A DNA stretch of 34,827 nucleotides from the NCBI GenBank assembly GCA_944326555.1, contig CALVEK010000021.1, forward strand, positions 1 through 34,827, read 5' to 3'. Shown here piece by piece: positions 5,756 through 33,968 of the stretch. The position numbers were made by a program, and so were the translations under genes. Origin of the DNA: Candidatus Gastranaerophilales bacterium. GTDB taxonomy: Bacteria; Cyanobacteriota; Vampirovibrionia; Gastranaerophilales; Gastranaerophilaceae. The notes beneath the pieces are model-generated. The model had not been told where the DNA came from. It saw only the letters and a list, made by a program, of their open reading frames with translations, and did no database searches. Position 1 is the first letter of the stretch; each line of letters starts with the position of its first letter.

Positions 5756-6715
5756 TTATCCGCCCATTTCTTCTGCAGCAGGTGCTAAAATTGCGAAAGG
5801 ATAACGATTTTCTGCTCCTTTTCTGCTTACTGGGTTCGCTATTTGAACACCTAATCTCATCACGCAGCGCAAAGCAACCATATCTTGTTGAGCAAGGTTG
5901 TAGGCGATAGAACCGTCTGTGTTTTGAATAATAGCCTGATCAAGAACTTTGTAAGTGATATCTTGGCGTATTGAGTAAACTGCTTTTGTGAAATCACCTG
6001 CGATAAGCAGCGCTTTAGAAGGGTCAAAAATACCTGTTTCATCGTATTTCATAGGTCTTCCAACAAGGCTTACAGGCATTTCGGAAGTCAGCCCAGGTGT
6101 GTATAAAAGCTGATTGTTTTTGTCTCTGAGGTTTCTGAATTTTGCTTCTAATTTGCTGTCGGCATAGAATCCTGTAACTTTGTATCCGCAATCTTCAACT
6201 TTTGACATTACACCGCCTTCACCAATGATATCACCCGCAATATCTTCATTTGTTCCGAGTTCTACAGTGTTACCTTTGGAAATTGCCTCTGTAACAATTG
6301 CTTCAGGATAAGTTGACGGCTTATTTACTCCAAAGAATACGGCTTCGTCGATTGCTACACCGAATGCTTCAACAATTTGCGGTTGAATTTCATCCCACAT
6401 GCTGTATTGTGCATCTTCAAAAACAGCTTCGGGAATGGGTACAATTACTGCAATTTCTTCTGCAGTAAGAGTTAATTTATCCCATTCTGCATTAGTTGTC
6501 TTTTTCATATCAGTATCGCCGTTTAAGAAATACGCAGTCGGTAAAGTGGAAGCAATTGGTAATGTTTTTTGTTTAGCACTCATGTTTGGCAATTGTTTAA
6601 ACAATGATAATGCTGCAGAAGCCTGTGGTACATTTTTTATAATTTCTGAAGAAGTTTCTACGGGAATAAGAGCTTCTGCATTAGAACGAGAAATAATTTT
6701 TGCATCTAGTGTCAT
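5756..6715 (-). CDS. HK97-fold phage major capsid protein
   Basis: A 319-aa protein with the hallmarks of the HK97 family. The N-terminal arm segment reads IISRSNAEALIPVETSSEII, then come E-loop-like strands (PIASTLPTAYFLNGDTD), the spine-helix region (VPIPEAVFEDAQYSMWDEIQ) with AIDEAVFFG, and late strands of the A domain (LIAGDFTKAVY, ALRCVMRLGVQI). There is no long N-terminal delta domain, so scaffolding is probably supplied by the separate gene just upstream. A strong AAAGGA site precedes the ATG. It would form the icosahedral shell. Confidence 0.88.
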   Translation of the reverse strand: MTLDAKIISRSNAEALIPVETSSEIIKNVPQASAALSLFKQLPNMSAKQKTLPIASTLPTAYFLNGDTDMKKTTNAEWDKLTLTAEEIAVIVPIPEAVFEDAQYSMWDEIQPQIVEAFGVAIDEAVFFGVNKPSTYPEAIVTEAISKGNTVELGTNEDIAGDIIGEGGVMSKVEDCGYKVTGFYADSKLEAKFRNLRDKNNQLLYTPGLTSEMPVSLVGRPMKYDETGIFDPSKALLIAGDFTKAVYSIRQDITYKVLDQAIIQNTDGSIAYNLAQQDMVALRCVMRLGVQIANPVSRKGAENRYPFAILAPAAEEMGG

Positions 6716-21817: not shown

Positions 21818-23475
<1,658 letters not shown>

Positions 23476-23877
23476 AGTAAAAAAATCCTTTGATATTTCT
23501 GTAATTAACCTTTTTATTTTTACTTATTTTTCAAAAATTACAAGTAAGTTCAGTGGATTATTTTCCGTAAGATTTCAGCCAAAATACCATAGTATAAAGT
23601 CTTTTTGTCTAATATATTTCAAATCAAAAACTAAATAAAAATTATAAAATCTAGTTCAAATCACTATAAATAAAAATTCTTCAAAAATATGTATATATAT
23701 ATTCTAAAAAGCGTCGTAAACGTAGTCGGCTCTTGAAAGCCTTGTCTAACAAGGGTTTTGCCATGCTTTGAAACGTAAGATTTTTGTTTTGTAGGTGTGG
23801 TTTTTGATGTAGTCTCAAAAAATAAAGCCGCATTTTTGCGGCTTTTATGTCAATATATATATCAAATCTGAAATTTC
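23476..23877. other. Intergenic region between the two recombinase genes
   Basis: About 400 bases, very AT-rich in the first half and without a credible gene. At 23740-23754 is the inverted repeat CCTTGT-CTA-ACAAGG inside a stretch of higher GC (about 23711-23775). This could be a recombination site or the junction of two nested elements. A terminator closes the right side. The promoter of recombinase 1 must lie in the left half but is not clear. Confidence 0.5.
23824..23848 (-). terminator. Terminator of recombinase 2
   Basis: AAAGCCGC pairs with GCGGCTTT over a seven-base loop (23824-23846). On the minus strand it is followed by TTTATTTTTTG; the plus side also has a short T run, so it may act both ways. 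Confidence 0.8.
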
Positions 23878-25353
23878 TTATCTTTTTCTAATTTTTCTAA
23901 ATGCTGATTTGAATGTCATCTTTAATCTGTTACCATCGCTTTTAAATACGTTAGATACTAAACTAAGAATTTTTTGCTTAGTAATAGTATCAAAACTCTC
24001 AAAAACGTCATAAAGACTGTTCTCAAAGGCTTCACTGACTTTTGCATTTACTGTTTCTAATTGCTTTTCTGCTACATAGATTTTTGAGTCTAAATCTCCA
24101 TATTTTTCATTTATATTGGCTAGTTTACCTCTAATATATTGTTCATCTGTAATATTTTTTCTAGTTATATCTTCCCAAGCTTGCCTTTCTGCATTGTATT
24201 TATGGCTTTTGCTTCTTTTTAGAATTGCTAATTTTTGTGTGTGGGAATATAGTTCATTTTTTAAGACATTTTTCACAATTTTGTTAGGAATAAGTCCCAA
24301 ACGAATCTCTTTAAGATATGTTTTTAAGTCATTATCAAGTATCGTTTCACTAATACAAACACGATCATTGCATTTAGGATTTGTACAGCGATAGTATACA
24401 TATTGTTTGCCATTATGTTTCTTCTTGACATCAGCTGTCATGCAGTGTCCACAGGTTATACAAGTTAGAAGTTTTGAATATTTAAAGTTGTATTTACGAG
24501 GGGCTTTGGGAGCTGAATCAAGAAAATTTTGAACTTTTTCAAAAAGTTCTTCCGTAATAATTGGTTTATGATTACCAGCTTTATATTCATCAACTTGTTT
24601 TATGTGGTATTTACCTGTATAGAAAGGATTTTTCAATATAGATATAAGAGATTGCTTTGGAATGATTTGGGATTCTTGTAGTTCGTACATAAAACCCTGA
24701 CGATATAATTCATTTGCCAGTTCAGAAATTGTGTAGTTTCCTGTTGCGTATAGTTCGAATGCTTTTTTTACAAAATTTGCTCTTTTTTCATTAATTACGG
24801 CAGTTCTTTTATCTCGTGGCCCATCATTTTCGTATCCATAAGGCGGTCGGCATGGGCGAAAACCTTTCAGTGCTTTTGCAAGAATTCCTGCTTTGCACTT
24901 TTCGTTGTCTTGTCGAACTCTGTAATTTGAAACACCGAGAATTGTATCTAACATTAGCATTTCATGTGCCCTAATTGGTGTTTGTAAAATAAGATTTTCT
25001 TGAACAAATACAGCTGTCAATCCTTCTTCTTGTACAAGTTGTAAGATTTTGTAAGCATCTATAGGGTTTCTTGACATTCTATCTATAAATGCAAAAATAG
25101 CTACGTCTGCAACTCCATTTTTGAGCTTTTTTATTACCTCATTGAACATAGGTCTGGTCTCAGGCTTCATAGCACTTCCGTCTTCTTTGTATATTGATTC
25201 GATATTCATATTGCATTTTTTTGCAAAATTTATACATAATATTTCTTGGTCATTCAAAGACGTATTTTCAGTTTGCTCTTTGCTTGAAACTCTACAATAA
25301 ATTATACAAGTAGCATTTTTTATATTATTTAGTTTGTTATTGTTTTGATTCAT
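23878..25353 (-). CDS. Large serine recombinase 2
   Basis: A 491-aa serine recombinase, distinct from its neighbour. The resolvase domain carries the Ser nucleophile in YCRVSSKEQTEN and FIDRMSRNPIDA. The recombinase domain has CRPPYGYEN and an Arg/Lys-rich hinge. The zinc ribbon has CITCGHC and CTNPKCNDRVC. A coiled-coil C-terminus ends in a basic tail (FKSAFRKIRKR). AAGGA precedes the ATG. The ATPase gene stops 63 bases upstream on the same strand, so they may share a transcript. Two full-length recombinases in tandem suggest nested insertion or a two-recombinase element; which one moves the island cannot be decided here. Confidence 0.9.
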   Translation of the reverse strand: MNQNNNKLNNIKNATCIIYCRVSSKEQTENTSLNDQEILCINFAKKCNMNIESIYKEDGSAMKPETRPMFNEVIKKLKNGVADVAIFAFIDRMSRNPIDAYKILQLVQEEGLTAVFVQENLILQTPIRAHEMLMLDTILGVSNYRVRQDNEKCKAGILAKALKGFRPCRPPYGYENDGPRDKRTAVINEKRANFVKKAFELYATGNYTISELANELYRQGFMYELQESQIIPKQSLISILKNPFYTGKYHIKQVDEYKAGNHKPIITEELFEKVQNFLDSAPKAPRKYNFKYSKLLTCITCGHCMTADVKKKHNGKQYVYYRCTNPKCNDRVCISETILDNDLKTYLKEIRLGLIPNKIVKNVLKNELYSHTQKLAILKRSKSHKYNAERQAWEDITRKNITDEQYIRGKLANINEKYGDLDSKIYVAEKQLETVNAKVSEAFENSLYDVFESFDTITKQKILSLVSNVFKSDGNRLKMTFKSAFRKIRKR

Positions 25354-25416: not shown

Positions 25417-27114
25417 CTAAACTTCACTGTAGTCTTCAAAATTTCCGTTGAAGGGTTGCTGATGTTTAGCTTTTTTTACAATTTCTAGCAAATATTCTTC
25501 TTTTGCTATATTGATAGATATTGTTTTTCCAATATCCATTGTTTTCCTTTTTGTATCAAAGCGACTATCTGCTTCAACATAGTTACAGAAGTCTGCCATT
25601 GTCAGCATTTTAGTGTCATCATTAGCAAACAAAATATTGAATTTATCAATGAATTTTCTTAAGTTGAGACGCAATATGCTATCTTGGATTAGTTTATAGT
25701 GTACATTATAGTTGAGTTCACCATTGTCTATAAGTTTTGATATATGTCTCAACATCAGGTCTGAATTTTTGACTTTAGATTCTAAATATTCTTCATAGCT
25801 ATTGCTGTAGGAAATAGCCATTTCTTTCCAGTCAAAGAGTTCTTCTCCCAAAATATGATTAACTAAAAACCAAGTAGAACAGGAGATAGCTACGCTTTTT
25901 AAATATCGATCTTCACTGTAATTTTGTATTTTTTGGCTTAAAATTTCATAAACCTTTTTGTATATTTGAATGATATGACCTTTATAGCTAAGTAAAAGGG
26001 GCAAAATAAGCGATAACTCTTTTCGTGTATTTTCTGTAAAATATTTGAATTTTTTCGAGTTAAAATTTGCCTTTTTCATATTTACAAATAAAGTACGTGA
26101 TAATAATGCTTCACTTGGGTTTACAAACTTGTAATTAGATGTGAAAACACAGGTTGTACATATAGAAATTTTTTCTATATTTGTTTTTGTCCCTCTTTCT
26201 CGTGGTATAGCACTATATAAATTTTTGACTAATTCTTCAACATCTTTTTTGAAAAAAGTTTGAGATAATTCCTCAATAAATACTGGTACGCTAATTCTTT
26301 TATTTAGTTCTGTTGATATAGCAAAAGGAGTCGATGTGCCCGATAATATACAACTATCTGACAGACCAAAAATTGAGGATAAACAGTACATTAGTGTACT
26401 TTTACCTGAGTGAGATTCTCCTAAAAAGAAAATTGCAGGGAAACCTTTGATTTCTTCTTGAAACGTATTCCAATAAATTACACTAAGAGCTGCACCAAAG
26501 CATAAAAGAGCTTTTTCATCACAGAAACATTCTTTTATGTTCTTGAAAAAATCACTTGCAATCTGTTTAATATTTTTTTCTGTGACATAAAGTTCTGGGC
26601 GACAGTTGTTGTTTATATCTATTAGGCTATTTTGTATATCATCATAATTTTTGCTTTGATCTAATTTTTGTAAATAATGAATTTTAGAACTATTGTAATC
26701 AAATGTAGCATTTTTCCAAACATAAGTATCCGATTGGTCCCCTCCGCAAGCAAATATGCTTCTAATGGGTGCATTTTCATTCAGTTTTTGCCTAAAGCTC
26801 TGAAATTGTTTATGCATAATACCCATATTCAGGTTTGTTGTATATTTGCTTAGTGCTGTAATAAATGTACGATAATCTATCAATTCTGAACCTGAAAATA
26901 AAGCAAGTATAGGTAATTGCTGTCGTGAACTATATAGTCTTAGTAGGAGTTGTTCTTTATTTTGGTTTAATGGAAATCTATTGTCTTTCTTGATTATTTT
27001 GGCAACAGGTTCAATTTTTAACGTTTCATCGTAGTTTTCAGGTTGTTCGGTTTTTTCTTCATTTGTTGTTTTAACTACAACAGGTAATAGCAGTTTATTT
27101 TGAGCGTCTTTCAT
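25417..27114 (-). CDS. SF3/DUF927-like replication ATPase of the mobile element
   Basis: A 565-aa protein whose centre is a P-loop ATPase: Walker A GESHSGKST (232-240), Walker B SVPVFIEELS (275-284), a polar sensor stretch VFTSN (323-327) and a candidate Arg finger in SEALLSRTLF (about 335-345). This layout resembles the DUF927/superfamily 3 helicases that replicate plasmids, phage satellites and integrative elements. The N-terminal 200 residues have no clear primase motif. A strong AGGAGG (27121-27126) lies six bases before the ATG, and the gene overlaps a 43-aa gene upstream. The likely job is to unwind or replicate the excised island. Helicase activity is inferred, not shown. Confidence 0.65.
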   Translation of the reverse strand: MKDAQNKLLLPVVVKTTNEEKTEQPENYDETLKIEPVAKIIKKDNRFPLNQNKEQLLLRLYSSRQQLPILALFSGSELIDYRTFITALSKYTTNLNMGIMHKQFQSFRQKLNENAPIRSIFACGGDQSDTYVWKNATFDYNSSKIHYLQKLDQSKNYDDIQNSLIDINNNCRPELYVTEKNIKQIASDFFKNIKECFCDEKALLCFGAALSVIYWNTFQEEIKGFPAIFFLGESHSGKSTLMYCLSSIFGLSDSCILSGTSTPFAISTELNKRISVPVFIEELSQTFFKKDVEELVKNLYSAIPRERGTKTNIEKISICTTCVFTSNYKFVNPSEALLSRTLFVNMKKANFNSKKFKYFTENTRKELSLILPLLLSYKGHIIQIYKKVYEILSQKIQNYSEDRYLKSVAISCSTWFLVNHILGEELFDWKEMAISYSNSYEEYLESKVKNSDLMLRHISKLIDNGELNYNVHYKLIQDSILRLNLRKFIDKFNILFANDDTKMLTMADFCNYVEADSRFDTKRKTMDIGKTISINIAKEEYLLEIVKKAKHQQPFNGNFEDYSEV

Positions 27115-28441: not shown

Positions 28442-29185
28442 TTAAAATCCTGTTACATCTTTAATTTTGTAATTTGTAACACTATCATCCATTATTGGTG
28501 CTTTAAATTTCCATTTACCATTTGGCTCAAGGTTATTAATATTATCTAATGTACTATCAACAAGGTTACCTGAGGCATCATATAAGTTAATTTCTACCTG
28601 AGCATATCCTTTTGTCCTGTTTGTATTATTTACAATAGTTCCACAAACCATTCTTGATCCAAAGTCGCCTGTGCACGGATGATGCTCAATTACTTCTAAA
28701 TCCTGTTTGGCCGTTTTTATTTGATTAGTGCTACTTTGTTGTTGGCTTGTTGCATTGGTTTTATTAGTGCCTGTATTATTCCATCCATCAAAGAAATTAT
28801 GTAGATTAAAGACAAGTGCTATTGTTATAATTATGCTCAAAACAATAGATAGAGTTTTGTTATATTCTTTCAAAGGCTTGTTGTTACGGTCTTTGTAGTT
28901 ACCCAAAGCAATACTATACATGTCAATTGTTGGCCAAATACCACAAAAGCCCCCAAAAGTTAAGATTTGAACAATACCTATACCGATATAACCTGTATAA
29001 AATCTGTGTATTCCTAGCCATCCTAAAAAGAAACATAATAAAGCTGTCGTTTTAAAGTCTTTTTGTGGTTTATTCAACCATTCACCACAGTACTTACACT
29101 TTTGTACTGAACTATCAATTAGTTCACCGCAGAAAGGGCATTTTTGCATTTGTACTTGATTTTGTTGAATACTTTCATTTGCCAT
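28442..29185 (-). CDS. Zinc-ribbon, TM2 and FxLYD domain membrane protein
   Basis: A 247-aa protein. The N-terminal zinc ribbon has CPFCGELI and CKYCGEWL (about 16-37). A TM2 domain follows (about 47-95): ALLCFFLGWLGIHRFYTGY, then GIGIVQILTFGG, with the Asp-containing turn WPTIDMYSIALG. A further membrane helix spans about 110-128, then a Ser/Thr/Asn linker. The C-terminal domain (about 160-247) has VCGTIVNNTNR and VEINLYDASGN, matching the FxLYD immunoglobulin-like fold. AAGGAG lies six bases before the ATG. The ribbon would be cytoplasmic and the FxLYD domain outside. It is followed by a terminator and paired with the next zinc-ribbon gene. Confidence 0.8.
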   Translation of the reverse strand: MANESIQQNQVQMQKCPFCGELIDSSVQKCKYCGEWLNKPQKDFKTTALLCFFLGWLGIHRFYTGYIGIGIVQILTFGGFCGIWPTIDMYSIALGNYKDRNNKPLKEYNKTLSIVLSIIITIALVFNLHNFFDGWNNTGTNKTNATSQQQSSTNQIKTAKQDLEVIEHHPCTGDFGSRMVCGTIVNNTNRTKGYAQVEINLYDASGNLVDSTLDNINNLEPNGKWKFKAPIMDDSVTNYKIKDVTGF

Positions 29186-29213
29186 AAATTTCTCCTTATG
29201 TTTTTAGTTTTTA

Positions 29214-30134
29214 TTAATAACAGTAATCTCCATATTCACATCTCAAGTTTGCTGCATAATCAAAAGCTTTTTGTGCTTGTTCTGCAGCAGTATTGTCTTT
29301 TAGTTTTTTGAATTTTGAAGTGGCTTCCCAAAAATTATCCATAGATTCTCTGTATTGCTTCTGTTCCAGATATAAATAGCCTAAAGCGTACTGTTTTTTT
29401 GCTTTTATTTTAGGATCATTTTTTAACTTGAGAATTTTTTCATAATCATTTACTGCATTTTTATACTCTTTTTTTTGTAGATATATATCTGCTCTGTATT
29501 GATATGCAGTAGTAAAATTTTTATTGATGAAGATTGCCTTATTAAAATCATTAATTGCTTCATTTAGTTTATTAAGACGTGATTTTGCATACCCTCTTTC
29601 ACTGTAAGCTTTATAATTATTCTTATTTAGAGCTATTAAAATATCAAAATAATTTATTGCTTTTTCATAATTTTTTTCTTTTATTGATTTTTCTCCTGCA
29701 TTAAAAAGCAAATTTATGTAATAGCTAGGAGCTTGTTTGTTGACAGAAATTGAAGTTCTTAATAAATTGAAAGTTCTATTTTTTTCTCCATTTGCAGCTT
29801 CATTTAAAATTGTATTTTCTATTAAATTGAAGTATTTGTTTTTTTCATTTTTATTTATACTTATACCACTTTGTATTAAGTAAACGGAACCTTTTATATT
29901 TCCGTTTTCAGATAGTTCAATACCTTTGTTGACAAAAAAATCTGCATATATATTTTTGAAAAAAAACAATATCAAAACCATCCAAACAGCAAACAAAACG
30001 AAAAAAAATTCTTTTCCAAGTGTATTTTCCTTAAGAAATTGTCCGCAAAACCTACATTTTATTGCAGTAATATTTATTTTGTTTCCGCAATGCATGCAAG
30101 TTTTTTTAGTCGATTGTATTTTGTCTTTATTCAT
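29214..30134 (-). CDS. Zinc-ribbon membrane protein with TPR repeats
   Basis: A 306-aa protein. I use the ATG at 30134 because AAGGA lies six bases upstream; a longer frame to 30197 lacks this. The N-terminal zinc ribbon has CMHCGNKI and CRFCGQFL, close to that of the next gene. One membrane helix follows (FFFVLFAVWMVLILFFF). From about 90 on, at least four TPR-like units appear, best in NYEKAINYFDILIALNKNNY, NKLNEAINDFNKAIFINKNF, EYKNAVNDYEKILKLK and QYRESMDNFWEATSKF. TPRs bind proteins, so it may recruit a partner at the membrane. It is 28 bases from the TM2-protein gene, so it is first in a two-gene operon. Confidence 0.75.
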   Translation of the reverse strand: MNKDKIQSTKKTCMHCGNKINITAIKCRFCGQFLKENTLGKEFFFVLFAVWMVLILFFFKNIYADFFVNKGIELSENGNIKGSVYLIQSGISINKNEKNKYFNLIENTILNEAANGEKNRTFNLLRTSISVNKQAPSYYINLLFNAGEKSIKEKNYEKAINYFDILIALNKNNYKAYSERGYAKSRLNKLNEAINDFNKAIFINKNFTTAYQYRADIYLQKKEYKNAVNDYEKILKLKNDPKIKAKKQYALGYLYLEQKQYRESMDNFWEATSKFKKLKDNTAAEQAQKAFDYAANLRCEYGDYCY

Positions 30135-30339
30135 GAAAAATCCTTTTGAATATATGTTTTTTGTTGCTGAATTTTTATAGTACTCAAACAACATCACATT
30201 TTAATAGATTTATTTTAAAAGTTAACCATATTTATGTAAATAGGCTTTTTAATGTATATAAAAATATGCTTAATTCCAACTTTAAACATAATAGTGTCCG
30301 TAAGTTACTAAACACGCTAACATATTAATAAGAGGTAGT

Positions 30340-30751: not shown

Positions 30752-31942
30752 TCATTTTTGATTATCTTTATCTTTGAATATGTCGCTAAATTTAACAATT
30801 GCCTTATTGTAGAAAGTAAAATTCTTTTCATCAGAATCCGCGATATTTTTAATTCCAACTTTGTTTAAAAAATGCCAAGCAAAATCTTTTTTGGCTTTTG
30901 CAGTAGGTGTTTCATCTGGTTTTTCAGAAAATATATTATTTAAAGAGCTTACATACAAATCAGATAATTGAATTAAGATATTATCTTTCGAATCTATCCA
31001 CTGTAGTTTATTTATATTAACGAAATACTTATATCTCTCATTCAAAGTATTTTGTAAACTATTTTCTTTGTCTTTTGCTTCGAGCAAATCAGGACTTTTA
31101 CCATCAATGTCAAGAAAAATATTTAAATCAACTAACGAATTTAGCAATGAATCCTTTGTTGCTTTTTGTATAACATCACTTAATACTTCTAACAGCAAGA
31201 ATTCTAATAATTTTTCGGATTTGATTTTTTTTGAATGTTGTTTTAACCCTTTGTTTTCTATTGAAATAGAGTAAAAGGTTGGTATTTGTTCGAGTTTAAA
31301 TATTTCATCAATAAAATCAATATAAAAACGATAGTTTGATGTTTTTATGTTTCCAAATTTTAGTTCTTCGTCTTTTACTTTATACTTTTGACATAGTTTT
31401 TCCTTCATTAAGGATATTTTTTGTTGATACATTTTTAAATTTGAGTCGTAAGAGTCAATTGCTATCCCTGCCAATATAAAATATGGTCCTTCTTTACCAC
31501 TTTCATCAAAAAACAAGCTATATTCTGCTGTTTTACATATTTCTTCTGCTTTTTCTTTTAAATAACAGTTTTTATATTCATCACTTCTGTCTTTTCTTCC
31601 GCGTTTAACCGAGTCATTTGCTTTAAAAAGTTTGTAATCATTTTGTATCTTTGCCCTATCTCTTTGTATGTCATACATTTTAGGTAATTTGTAGAAGTTT
31701 TGAAAAGAAATTGTCTCTCCTATGACCATATCAGGATGAAAAACACTATAATATCTTAAGGCTAAAGTTATATCACTATTTCTCGTTTCAGGATATTGCC
31801 ACAATATATAGCCAACTTTACTTAAATTTGAAGATTCAATAGTTTTTTGTAATGCAAAAGCTTCTTTTATTTTTGATATTTCAGCAATCCTCTTATAAAA
31901 TAAAGCGCTTGAAATTTTTTGTTTTTTGCTTTTTCTAGGCAA
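30752..31942 (-). CDS. DUF3800 protein with an extra N-terminal domain
   Basis: A 396-aa protein. The C-terminal ~250 residues match DUF3800: YSLFFDESGKEGPYFILAGI (the conserved Asp-Glu-Ser), a central Lys/Leu-rich helical part, DLNIFLDIDG, and IQLSDLYVSSLNNIF, as in the family's 'iQ.aD..ag'. This family is predicted to have an RNase H-like fold and often occurs near mobile elements and defence genes. The first ~130 residues (SDITLALRYYSVFHPDMV, then YDIQRDRAKIQNDYKLF) resemble a module seen in phage proteins that carry an 'RxRxKIQ' helix, perhaps for nucleic-acid binding. Both parts lie in one frame. It starts 187 bases from the divergent protease operon. Confidence 0.75.
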   Translation of the reverse strand: MPRKSKKQKISSALFYKRIAEISKIKEAFALQKTIESSNLSKVGYILWQYPETRNSDITLALRYYSVFHPDMVIGETISFQNFYKLPKMYDIQRDRAKIQNDYKLFKANDSVKRGRKDRSDEYKNCYLKEKAEEICKTAEYSLFFDESGKEGPYFILAGIAIDSYDSNLKMYQQKISLMKEKLCQKYKVKDEELKFGNIKTSNYRFYIDFIDEIFKLEQIPTFYSISIENKGLKQHSKKIKSEKLLEFLLLEVLSDVIQKATKDSLLNSLVDLNIFLDIDGKSPDLLEAKDKENSLQNTLNERYKYFVNINKLQWIDSKDNILIQLSDLYVSSLNNIFSEKPDETPTAKAKKDFAWHFLNKVGIKNIADSDEKNFTFYNKAIVKFSDIFKDKDNQK

Positions 31943-32129: not shown

Positions 32130-32303
32130 ATGGAAGATCTTAGGTATAAAGAAATAACTACTGATATACTAAAATTTATGAAATCAGATGGAAAAAAAGA
32201 GTTTGTCCTTAATTCAAGTAAACAGGCAAGTGATGTTTCTCAAAATATGGTACAATCATTGTTAGTGTCACCTGAAGTTATGAAGTTACGTATAGGTGTT
32301 TAA
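32130..32303 (+). CDS. Small 57-aa protein coupled to the protease
   Basis: A short gene starting MEDLRYKEITTDILKFM and ending SPEVMKLRIGV. It is hydrophilic and probably helical, with no signal peptide and no cysteine. GGGTG lies before the ATG. Its stop codon abuts the TTG start of the protease gene with no gap, and that gene's ribosome site lies within its last codons, so the two are translationally coupled. Small partners next to proteases are often inhibitors, substrates or chaperones; which one applies here is unknown. Confidence 0.55.
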   Translation: MEDLRYKEITTDILKFMKSDGKKEFVLNSSKQASDVSQNMVQSLLVSPEVMKLRIGV

Positions 32304-33968
32304 TTGACTTTAGATATTGATTTAAAAGCAAGTGATAAAAATTTTATAATATTGCCGTATGATTTTGAAACTTTAAAGTCTGTCTTTTTAACATTCTCTC
32401 AAATAAACACCAATTATTTAGAACAAAAACTTGATAATAATTTCTATAAAGATTATTTGCAAACTTTAAATGTTAAAACTTTTGTTGTTGAAAAACAATA
32501 TATTGATAAAGATTTTTTGAATGATTATGCAAGTTATTATGTGAAGTGTTTTCACCCATATGAACGTTTTTGTACTAGATTGCATTTCTTTTCTTGTGAA
32601 ATAACGGAAGAAAATTTTAATAGCTTATTAACGGATTTTCAACTTTTTAAAGAAAATCATCAAAAGTTGCAAGATAATTATCTTGGTTATATGGTAATAA
32701 AAAATTTACCGCAGAGTATTATTGGCAAGACTTGTTTAAAAAGTTACCCCAAAGACGATAATCGTTATTTTCCAGCGACTGTTAAACATAAGGTTCATCT
32801 TGCCGGAATACCTTTGTATATAGAAACACTACCTTTTCAGGAACAAGATAGCGTAGTTGCGGCTTGTGCAACTAGTTCATTATGGAGTATGTTTTATGGA
32901 ACAGGTGAATTGTTTCATCATTCTATTCCATCACCGTATGAAATTACAAAAGCTGCAACACAGGATTTTCCTGTATCGAATAGAGCATTTCCAAATCATG
33001 GTTTGAGTTTAGAAATGATGGCTAAAGCTATAAATAAAGTTGGGTTAGAACCGTTATGTATAAATGCAGATAGTGAAGTCCTAACTAAAGCAACAATTTA
33101 CGCATATTTGAAAGCCCATTTACCTGTTATGATGGGTATAAAACTTATTAATAGAATTACTAATAGAGTAGATATGCATGCCGTAACTATTGTTGGCTAT
33201 AATTTTGATGAAAATAAAAAAATAGATTGCGTATACCAGCAGCCACATGAGGGATATCCCTTTAATTTAAGGGCATCTAATATTTCAAAAATATATGTAC
33301 ATGATGATCAAGTTGGACCATTTGCAAAAATGGAGTTTGGAAAAATTGGTTTTGATATTGATAAGTATGGGAAAGTAATGAAAAATGAAGATGGTTCTAC
33401 TTATGAAAGATGGATTTTAACTACATCTTATGGTATGGAAAATGGGAGAAAAATTTATCATGCAATTCCTAAAGCATTATTGATACCTACATATCATAAA
33501 ATAAGAATTCCTTTTGAATCTATATTAAGACAAGTATATGAGTTTAATCATTTGTTTGTCGATTTTTCAAATTTTTTAAATAATGAACATGTAAAGAAAA
33601 TGGCTTCTGGATTTTCTTGGGAAATATTTTTGACAGATATTAATGAGTTTAAATATTCAATTATTAGTGATGAAATATTGTCAAAAGATGAAAAATTACG
33701 ATTAACAAATTCTCGTTATCCTCGTTTTTTGTGGAGAGTAAAGGTTTATTCTTTTGCTGAAAATATATTTGATTTGATTTTTGATGCAACAGATATAGAG
33801 CAAAATGAATATATGAAAGAAACTGTTGTGTACAATCATGAGGCGATGGAAATGATGCAACAATTTTCATTGCTTTATTATGAACGAGGCATGACACAAA
33901 CAAGAAATAAAATAATAAATAGCCTTTCTGCTAAGGCGAAAAATATTGAATTGAGCAGAACGATATAA
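32304..33968 (+). CDS. Cytosolic papain-like (C39-like) cysteine protease
   Basis: A 554-aa protein with a TTG start fixed by its junction with the small gene and an AGGTG eight bases upstream. The core is a papain-like site: FQEQDSVVAACATSSLWS (nucleophile Cys188, with Gln179 or Gln181 as oxyanion residue), VDMHAVTIVGYN (His292) and KIYVHDDQVGPFAKM (Asp334 or Asp335). There is no signal peptide or membrane helix, unlike exported C39 peptidases. The N-terminal ~160 and C-terminal ~170 residues have no recognised domain and may bind a target. A weak hairpin and T run follow. It probably cleaves a protein inside the cell, but the target is unknown. Confidence 0.7.
   Translation: MTLDIDLKASDKNFIILPYDFETLKSVFLTFSQINTNYLEQKLDNNFYKDYLQTLNVKTFVVEKQYIDKDFLNDYASYYVKCFHPYERFCTRLHFFSCEITEENFNSLLTDFQLFKENHQKLQDNYLGYMVIKNLPQSIIGKTCLKSYPKDDNRYFPATVKHKVHLAGIPLYIETLPFQEQDSVVAACATSSLWSMFYGTGELFHHSIPSPYEITKAATQDFPVSNRAFPNHGLSLEMMAKAINKVGLEPLCINADSEVLTKATIYAYLKAHLPVMMGIKLINRITNRVDMHAVTIVGYNFDENKKIDCVYQQPHEGYPFNLRASNISKIYVHDDQVGPFAKMEFGKIGFDIDKYGKVMKNEDGSTYERWILTTSYGMENGRKIYHAIPKALLIPTYHKIRIPFESILRQVYEFNHLFVDFSNFLNNEHVKKMASGFSWEIFLTDINEFKYSIISDEILSKDEKLRLTNSRYPRFLWRVKVYSFAENIFDLIFDATDIEQNEYMKETVVYNHEAMEMMQQFSLLYYERGMTQTRNKIINSLSAKAKNIELSRTI

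What the first reader, a model, noticed from the sequence alone, without database searches (positions are those of the whole stretch)
32130..33968. Possible new two-gene system: 57-aa protein and cytosolic cysteine protease
The genes abut with no gap, the protease has a full Cys-His-Asp set, it lacks any export signal, and it has large unique flanking domains. It lies in an accessory island next to a divergent DUF3800 gene. The layout fits a protease effector held in check by, or activated through, its small partner (defence or toxin-antitoxin). I recognise no described system with this pair.
Basis: inference. Interest (0 to 1): 0.65.

Follow-up and report, generated by a model that had tools for sequence, protein, structure and literature searches.

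The report
Cytosolic protease with small partner gene
A previously unnamed pair of genes, a tiny protein and a papain-like protein-cutting enzyme that stays inside the cell, is shared by very different bacteria and usually sits among virus-defence genes or in prophages; its layout suggests that the small protein is made in excess to keep a dangerous protease in check.

Summary
The two ORFs are real genes and the pair is conserved well beyond this genome. Relatives of the protease (P) turned up in 18 distinct loci from at least three phyla, E. coli included. In 17 of 18 a 52-67 aa ORF (S) lies directly upstream. P has a papain-like fold (staphopain Z 14.6). Cys188 and His292 are kept in 17 of 18, Asp335 and Gln181 in 18 of 18. 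One E. coli lineage has lost both Cys and His. S is under purifying selection, and its last 12 residues form a motif anchored at the C-terminus.

New here: where S and P are separated by more than 20 nt, 7 of 8 gaps hold an intrinsic-terminator-like hairpin just before P. Where they abut, P usually starts with TTG or GTG (7 of 9). Both layouts should keep S in excess over P, as the ToxIN terminator does for ToxI over ToxN. Neighbours are often defence genes (pAgo, E1/multiubiquitin, RmrA, ABC-3C). One copy sits in the known P2 gpA-gpQ defence hotspot.

Best reading: a two-gene, toxin-antitoxin-like conflict system with a cytosolic protease effector and a small inhibitor. Inhibition by S and phage defence are inferred, not shown. 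DUF3800 is not part of it.

The parts
32130..32303 (+). small partner gene S (57 aa)
   Evidence: ORF; omega 0.12 vs L002, 0.18 vs L018; a small ORF upstream of the protease in 17 of 18 loci; annotated as a hypothetical protein in 6 of 6 annotated records
32265..32300 (+). codons for the conserved C-terminal 12 residues of S (VSPEVMKLRIGV-COOH)
   Evidence: ungapped C-terminal alignment of 14 loci: score 521 vs shuffles -691 (sd 100), 0 of 1000 shuffles reach it; dN 0.000 / 0.072 / 0.000 in the last 16 codons
32301..32306 (+). S stop TAA directly followed by P start TTG (coupled junction)
   Evidence: sequence; same junction in L002 and L018
32304..33968 (+). protease gene P (554 aa)
   Evidence: ORF; relatives; alignment A3
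32754..33503 (+). papain-like core of P (residues about 151-400)
   Evidence: AlphaFold2 model pLDDT 74, pTM 0.77; staphopain C 8oig Z 14.6 over 173 residues, rmsd 3.4
32844..32846 (+). Gln181, presumed oxyanion-hole residue
   Evidence: 18 of 18; role by analogy with papain (recalled)
32865..32867 (+). Cys188, presumed nucleophile
   Evidence: 17 of 18; Tyr in E. coli L022
33177..33179 (+). His292, presumed base
   Evidence: 17 of 18; Tyr in E. coli L022
33306..33308 (+). Asp335, presumed third catalytic residue
   Evidence: 18 of 18; the preceding His333-Asp334 are kept in 17 of 18

Best explanation
S-P is a horizontally moving two-gene conflict system that works like a toxin-antitoxin or protease-inhibitor pair. 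P is a cytosolic papain-like cysteine protease and the effector. S is a small, mostly helical protein that binds P through a tail anchored at its free C-terminus and keeps it inactive. The locus is built to make S in excess of P: by a terminator placed between the genes in the spaced layout, and by a TTG or GTG start coupled to the S stop in the abutting layout. Invasion by a phage or other element would disturb S (loss of a short-lived protein after host shut-off, or direct displacement) and free P, which then cleaves a host or phage protein. Shown: the pair, the fold, the conserved catalytic residues, selection on S and its C-terminal motif, the terminators and the weak starts, and the patchy defence/prophage distribution. 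Inferred: proteolysis, binding of S to P, inhibition, the trigger, the target, and a defence phenotype.
For: Pairing: S upstream of P in 17 of 18 loci across Bacteroidota, Alpha- and Gammaproteobacteria and the window's own group. Catalysis: Q181/C188/H292/D335 in 18/17/17/18 of 18; papain-like fold with staphopains and C39 peptidases at Z 13-14.6; L005 just passes Pfam Peptidase_C39_2, 24.7 bits against a cut-off of 24. S as a trans-acting protein: omega 0.12-0.18; C-terminal motif 521 vs -691 +/- 100, with position -7 and position -3 hydrophobic in 14 of 14 each, present in both layouts. Excess of S: terminator-like hairpin in 7 of 8 gaps over 20 nt, each of the 7 beating 500 of 500 shuffles; in the same six annotated loci 5 of 6 S-P gaps but 0 of 17 other co-directional gaps of 30-130 nt have one, Fisher p 0.00018; P starts are TTG/GTG in 7 of 9 abutting loci but 1 of 8 spaced loci. 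The terminator lies so close to the P start that a promoter for P can hardly fit between them (inference). Setting: 4 of 23 genomes of the genus, 2 of 386 in a phylum sample, 20 of 5426 E. coli; P2-like gpA-gpQ position in L016, which PMC9122126 describes as a defence hotspot holding old and tin (passages read); prophage late regions in L018 and L025; defence-model neighbours. ToxIN precedent for a terminator setting antitoxin excess: PMC5772629, passages read.
Against: No activity, binding or protection has been tested. The fused S-P model gave no confident docking: the S tail has pLDDT 26-37. L017 has P without an S-like ORF. E. coli L022 and its kin, 19 of the 20 E. coli hits, have lost Cys and His yet keep S, so in that lineage the pair, if functional, does not work by proteolysis (only L022 and L024 were read). 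L006 has a 66-nt gap without a terminator, and its S tail (like that of L004) ends in Arg. In the window P may have a usable ribosome site (AGGTG before TTG), so low translation is assumed. Neighbour genes sent to PADLOC were picked by me, not at random, and PADLOC models are broad (control 2 of 10). P start codons were assigned by me.
Confidence: 0.5

Rival explanations
1. S is a cis-acting leader or arrest peptide: the conserved C-terminus acts at the ribosome at the stop codon and controls read-through of the terminator or re-initiation at P, as TnaC or other arrest peptides do (recalled). P is the only effector and is switched on by translation stress.
For: Conservation is anchored exactly at the S stop codon; a terminator lies between S and P in 7 of 8 spaced loci; abutting loci have weak starts coupled to the S stop.
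Against: S is 52-67 aa with purifying selection in its N-terminal part too (omega 0.11, 0.25, 0.20); the motif is the same in loci without any terminator; S stop codons vary (TAA 13, TAG 3, TGA 1); pairing of the terminator 5' arm with upstream RNA is no better than shuffles at p<0.05 in 7 of 7 tested loci.
Confidence: 0.15
2. S is an activator, substrate or adaptor of P: for example a sensor whose tail is inserted in, or cleaved by, P, or which brings the target to P.
For: A free, conserved C-terminal tail fits a peptide that enters a protease cleft; tight pairing (17 of 18 loci) fits any partner role.
Against: The layout that makes S in excess fits an inhibitor better than a stoichiometric activator, though an excess substrate is not excluded.
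Confidence: 0.22
3. The 57-aa ORF and P are one gene broken by TAA (or read through).
For: Same frame in the window, no other stop in between.
Against: TAA-TTG junction kept in L002 and L018; different frames in 8 of 17 loci; hairpins or other non-coding spacers of 46-84 nt in 8 loci; separate annotation in 6 of 6 records.
Confidence: 0.01
4. P is a component or accessory of bacterial ubiquitin-like systems (a de-conjugating protease for multiubiquitin), not a stand-alone system.
For: multiubiquitin and ThiF/E1 genes next to the pair in P. aeruginosa L005 and Mesorhizobium L006; ubiquitin-fold proteases UfSP2 and ZUFSP among the fold matches, Z 10.6-11.9.
Against: Only 2 of 18 loci have such genes nearby; the others that I looked at have unrelated neighbours. 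Staphopains and C39 peptidases match better.
Confidence: 0.07

Closest known systems
Staphopain-staphostatin and SpeB-Spi (papain-like protease with a small inhibitor encoded next to it; also Bacteroides C10 protease-bfi/bti pairs)
   Same: papain-like fold (staphopain C Z 14.6); small adjacent gene; PMC3462683 (passages read) says that these pairs are co-transcribed, that the inhibitors are thought to protect the cytoplasm and that co-transcription gives inhibitor stoichiometry
   Different: those proteases are secreted (recalled) and P shows no export signal; 12-13% identity in structural alignment; staphostatins resemble lipocalins (title in the reference list seen), whereas S is 52-67 aa and predicted helical at low confidence; P has extra N- and C-terminal regions; P lies in defence islands and prophages
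ToxIN, type III toxin-antitoxin (anti-phage)
   Same: terminator between antitoxin and toxin so that the antitoxin is in excess (PMC5772629, passages read; PMC8860590, passages read); phage-defence setting
   Different: antitoxin is an RNA repeat and toxin a ribonuclease; here S is a protein and P a protease
Type II toxin-antitoxin systems
   Same: small gene directly upstream of the effector, coupled, patchy and mobile
   Different: no DNA-binding domain recognised in S; effector is a large protease
Peptidase_C39_2 (PF13529)
   Same: one member, L005, scores 24.7 bits against a cut-off of 24; weak hits in L023 and L020
   Different: the window protein and most members score nothing in this family; long flanking regions; partner gene S

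Membership tests
Papain-like cysteine proteases (clan CA fold) | papain-like fold with Gln/Cys/His/Asp(Asn) in that order | tested here: met
   Z 14.6 to staphopain C over 173 residues; Q181 18/18, C188 17/18, H292 17/18, D335 18/18. Active-site geometry was not measured (no coordinates at hand).
Papain-like cysteine proteases (clan CA fold) | proteolytic activity | not testable with these tools
   none
Peptidase_C39_2 (PF13529) | whole-protein score at or above the Pfam cut-off of 24 bits | tested here: not met
   window P: no Pfam family at E<=1; of 10 relatives only L005 passes, 24.7 bits
Staphopain-staphostatin type pair | secreted protease (signal peptide) | tested here: not met
   no strongly hydrophobic N-terminal segment in 18 of 18 P proteins, simple hydropathy check
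Staphopain-staphostatin type pair | adjacent small gene that encodes an inhibitor of the protease | tested here: inconclusive
   adjacency met in 17 of 18 loci; inhibition not testable here
Toxin-antitoxin system | two co-expressed genes, effector toxic alone and neutralised by the partner | not testable with these tools
   layout only
Type III toxin-antitoxin (ToxIN) | RNA-repeat antitoxin and RNase toxin | tested here: not met
   S is protein-coding (omega 0.12-0.18); P is papain-like
Known anti-phage systems in PADLOC-DB 2.0.0 | match of S or P to a model | tested here: not met
   0 families for S and for P at E<=1
DUF3800 system / PDC-M04 | DUF3800 gene kept with the pair | tested here: not met
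   no such gene beside the pair in the closest relative L002 and none listed in the six annotated records

The most novel reading that the evidence does not exclude
A new class of bacterial immune or addiction system: a cytosolic papain-like protease whose activity is gated by a tiny protein that plugs it with its own C-terminus, with the inhibitor-to-protease ratio hard-wired by a terminator (or a weak coupled start) between the two genes, so that phage interference with host transcription or termination itself releases the protease. One E. coli lineage would carry a catalytically dead version that may act as a decoy, a regulator or a non-proteolytic binder.
Probability: 0.3. Interest if true: 0.82.

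Novelty: new variant of a known kind. Interest (0 to 1): 0.62.

Why it matters
Protease effectors in bacterial immunity are few next to nucleases and membrane toxins (general knowledge). A widespread cytosolic papain-like protease with a dedicated 52-67 aa partner would add an effector class and a compact protease-inhibitor module. The terminator between partner and effector, with unrelated stems in different phyla, gives a simple, testable idea of how infection could trip the system. The natural catalytically dead E. coli version offers a built-in control. The pair is present in E. coli, so the tests are easy.

Tried and rejected
Broken gene or stop read-through: rejected. DUF3800 or MerR as partners: rejected. 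L002 lacks DUF3800 beside the pair, and the MerR gene is in 3 of 23 genomes of the genus, one of which (G022) has no P match. Ubiquitin-like partner as the rule: rejected (2 of 18 loci). Classic attenuator with a competing antiterminator: no support in 7 loci by a simple duplex test. Docking of S on P by a fused model: uninformative. Sequence relatives in the PDB: none, by single sequence or profile. Phage isolates: no match with two queries. P. aeruginosa-type copy in E. coli: no match. Chance level of the terminators: shuffles and neighbouring gaps.

Literature: ten full-text searches brought up no paper that I could recognise as describing this pair, going by titles, abstract starts and the passages I opened. 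Accession numbers of the pair gave 0 papers. Mainly open-licence papers are held, no supplements were searched and few preprints are in the library, so this is weak evidence of absence. A resemblance to TnaC-type leaders and the papain catalytic order are recalled, from no call.

Rows dropped: L029 (truncated fragment), L026 (same protein as L025), L024 (near copy of L022), L030/L027/L028 (same records as L013/L015/L016). In the C-terminal statistic L002 and L018 (near window) and L023 (near L015) were left out and L017 has no S, so 14 loci were scored. The S of L016 was given two residues short (it probably starts at 5796).

Full report
WHAT IS THERE. S (32130-32303, 57 aa) and P (32304-33968, 554 aa, TTG start) are as described. 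They are in one frame, parted by TAA, so I first asked whether this is one broken gene. The 90% relative L002 and the 66% relative L018 keep the same TAA-TTG junction. Over 17 loci the two ORFs share a frame in 9 and differ in 8. S evolves as a protein: omega 0.12 (window/L002), 0.18 (window/L018), 0.15 (L002/L018), 0.12 (L015/L023). These are two genes.

HOW WIDE. P has no match in Pfam, PADLOC or NCBIfam at E<=1, one weak PHROG, and none in PDB sequences. tblastn found four plasmids (Hymenobacter, Shewanella, Pseudomonas aeruginosa, Mesorhizobium). Profile searches found 6 of 79 relatives' genomes, 4 of 23 in the genus, 2 of 386 in a phylum sample, and six distinct intact relatives in viral contigs. 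blastn found 20 of 5426 E. coli genomes. That makes 18 distinct loci. Within one genus copies differ down to 36% identity (window vs L011), as horizontal transfer would give.

S IS THE CONSTANT PARTNER. A 52-67 aa ORF lies directly upstream of P in 17 of 18 loci: from a 4-nt overlap to 12 nt away in nine, and 46-84 nt away in eight. The exception, L017, is the most diverged P (20-21%) and sits next to an Argonaute gene. S sequences hardly align over their length, but anchored at the C-terminus without gaps the last 12 residues of 14 loci score 521 against -691 +/- 100 for shuffles (0 of 1000). Position -7 and position -3 are hydrophobic in 14 of 14 and the last residue in 12 of 14, Ala counted. 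The motif reads roughly [VIM]-[STD]-x3-[LMFWV]-x3-hydrophobic-[GTS]-[LIV]-COOH. The last 16 codons show dN 0.000, 0.072 and 0.000. The motif is shared by abutting and spaced loci, so it is not a by-product of a ribosome site.

THE SPACER. Of 8 loci with a spacer over 20 nt, 7 hold a hairpin followed by a T-run (L003, L004, L005, L015, L016, L022, L023; not L006), with several unrelated stems. Each of these seven beat 500 of 500 dinucleotide shuffles. In the six annotated loci 5 of 6 S-P gaps have one against 0 of 17 other co-directional gaps of 30-130 nt (p 0.00018). A looser scan of 3-3.5 kb around two E. coli copies found such hairpins at about the shuffled rate overall, so it is the place and strength, not the mere presence, that counts. 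L015, L016 and L023 are related (53-84%), so these are not all independent. The hairpin lies about 10-40 nt before the P start, so a P transcript must pass it. In abutting loci there is no room for a hairpin and P starts with TTG (6) or GTG (1) in 7 of 9, against 1 of 8 in spaced loci (starts assigned by me). Both would make S in excess of P. ToxIN uses a terminator in this way (PMC5772629 and PMC8860590, passages read).

THE PROTEASE. An AlphaFold2 model from 8 sequences has pLDDT 74 and pTM 0.77. Its core matches staphopain C (Z 14.6, 173 residues, rmsd 3.4), other staphopain entries and C39 peptidases (Z about 13), and more weakly UfSP2/ZUFSP. Foldseek alone was weak (best E 1.8e-4) and the viral library gave only one match below E 0.001. 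Gln181, Cys188, His292 and Asp335 are kept in 18, 17, 17 and 18 of 18. The Asp-Asp pair 334/335 leaves some doubt which Asp acts, but 335 is the invariant one. In the E. coli W2-5 type (L022) Cys and His are both Tyr. L024, a near copy, also shows the His to Tyr change (the Cys was outside the stretch read there). Nineteen of the 20 E. coli hits are of this type by match pattern. The proteobacterial members from Shewanella, Pseudomonas and the enterobacteria carry about 150 further C-terminal residues.

SETTING. E. coli R2: island with TIR, FRG, CbtA and a restriction enzyme. E. coli W2-5: integrase element at tRNA-Pro with an ABC-three-component system. P. aeruginosa and Mesorhizobium: multiubiquitin and E1 genes. 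Hymenobacter: caspase and helicase. Shewanella: TrlF. L002 and L019: RmrA-like HTH-M78 proteins. L017: pAgo. L016: P2-like prophage between gpA and the portal gene, the hotspot with old and tin described in PMC9122126 (passages read). L018 between tape measure and Dit genes; L025 between terminase and portal. Of 20 neighbours that I chose, 14 match PADLOC at 1e-5; of 10 genes from the left part of the window 2 do. The choice was not blind, so I give this as support, not proof.

MECHANISM. A cytosolic protease that must be kept off, a small partner made in excess, a free conserved tail that could enter the protease cleft, and transfer with defence genes together point to an effector with a small inhibitor. 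Rivals are a cis-acting leader or arrest peptide, which would also explain conservation at the S stop, and an activator or substrate role. The fused model did not place S on P: its tail has pLDDT 26-37. The dead E. coli lineage and the S-less L017 are real exceptions. I put 0.5 on the inhibitor reading and above 0.9 on the pair being a genuine, conserved two-gene unit (my estimate).

NOVELTY. I found no model or paper that names the pair, within a largely open-access library and without supplements. It works like protease-inhibitor operons and like toxin-antitoxin pairs, but is no tested member of either.

Noticed in passing
L022 14004-16052 (E. coli W2-5) and kin: Naturally catalytically dead version: Cys188 and His292 are both Tyr while Gln181, Trp194 and Asp335 stay; its S tail ends in Ala where most others end in Leu/Ile/Val.
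   Followed up: partly
window 30752-31942 (-): DUF3800 gene matching PADLOC candidate PDC-M04A (E 1.5e-11) and phrog_3732; it lies between the MerR gene and the pair in the window but not in L002.
   Followed up: partly
window 21829-25353 (-): Two different large serine recombinases (Resolvase + Recombinase + zinc ribbon) lie almost side by side, next to a DUF927-type gene (25417-27114).
   Followed up: no
L003 4595-11596: Hymenobacter plasmid: the pair is flanked by a caspase-family gene and by a large protein with both caspase-like and DEAD-helicase matches.
   Followed up: no
L005 6839-9019, L023 14061-16139 and other proteobacterial P: About 150 extra C-terminal residues with a strongly conserved stretch (around GHPxLTG and SGRYS) and no Pfam family of their own.
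   Followed up: partly
window 28442-30197 (-): TM2/zinc-ribbon/FxLYD protein next to a zinc-ribbon TPR protein; similar zinc-ribbon genes lie upstream of the pair in L002.
   Followed up: no
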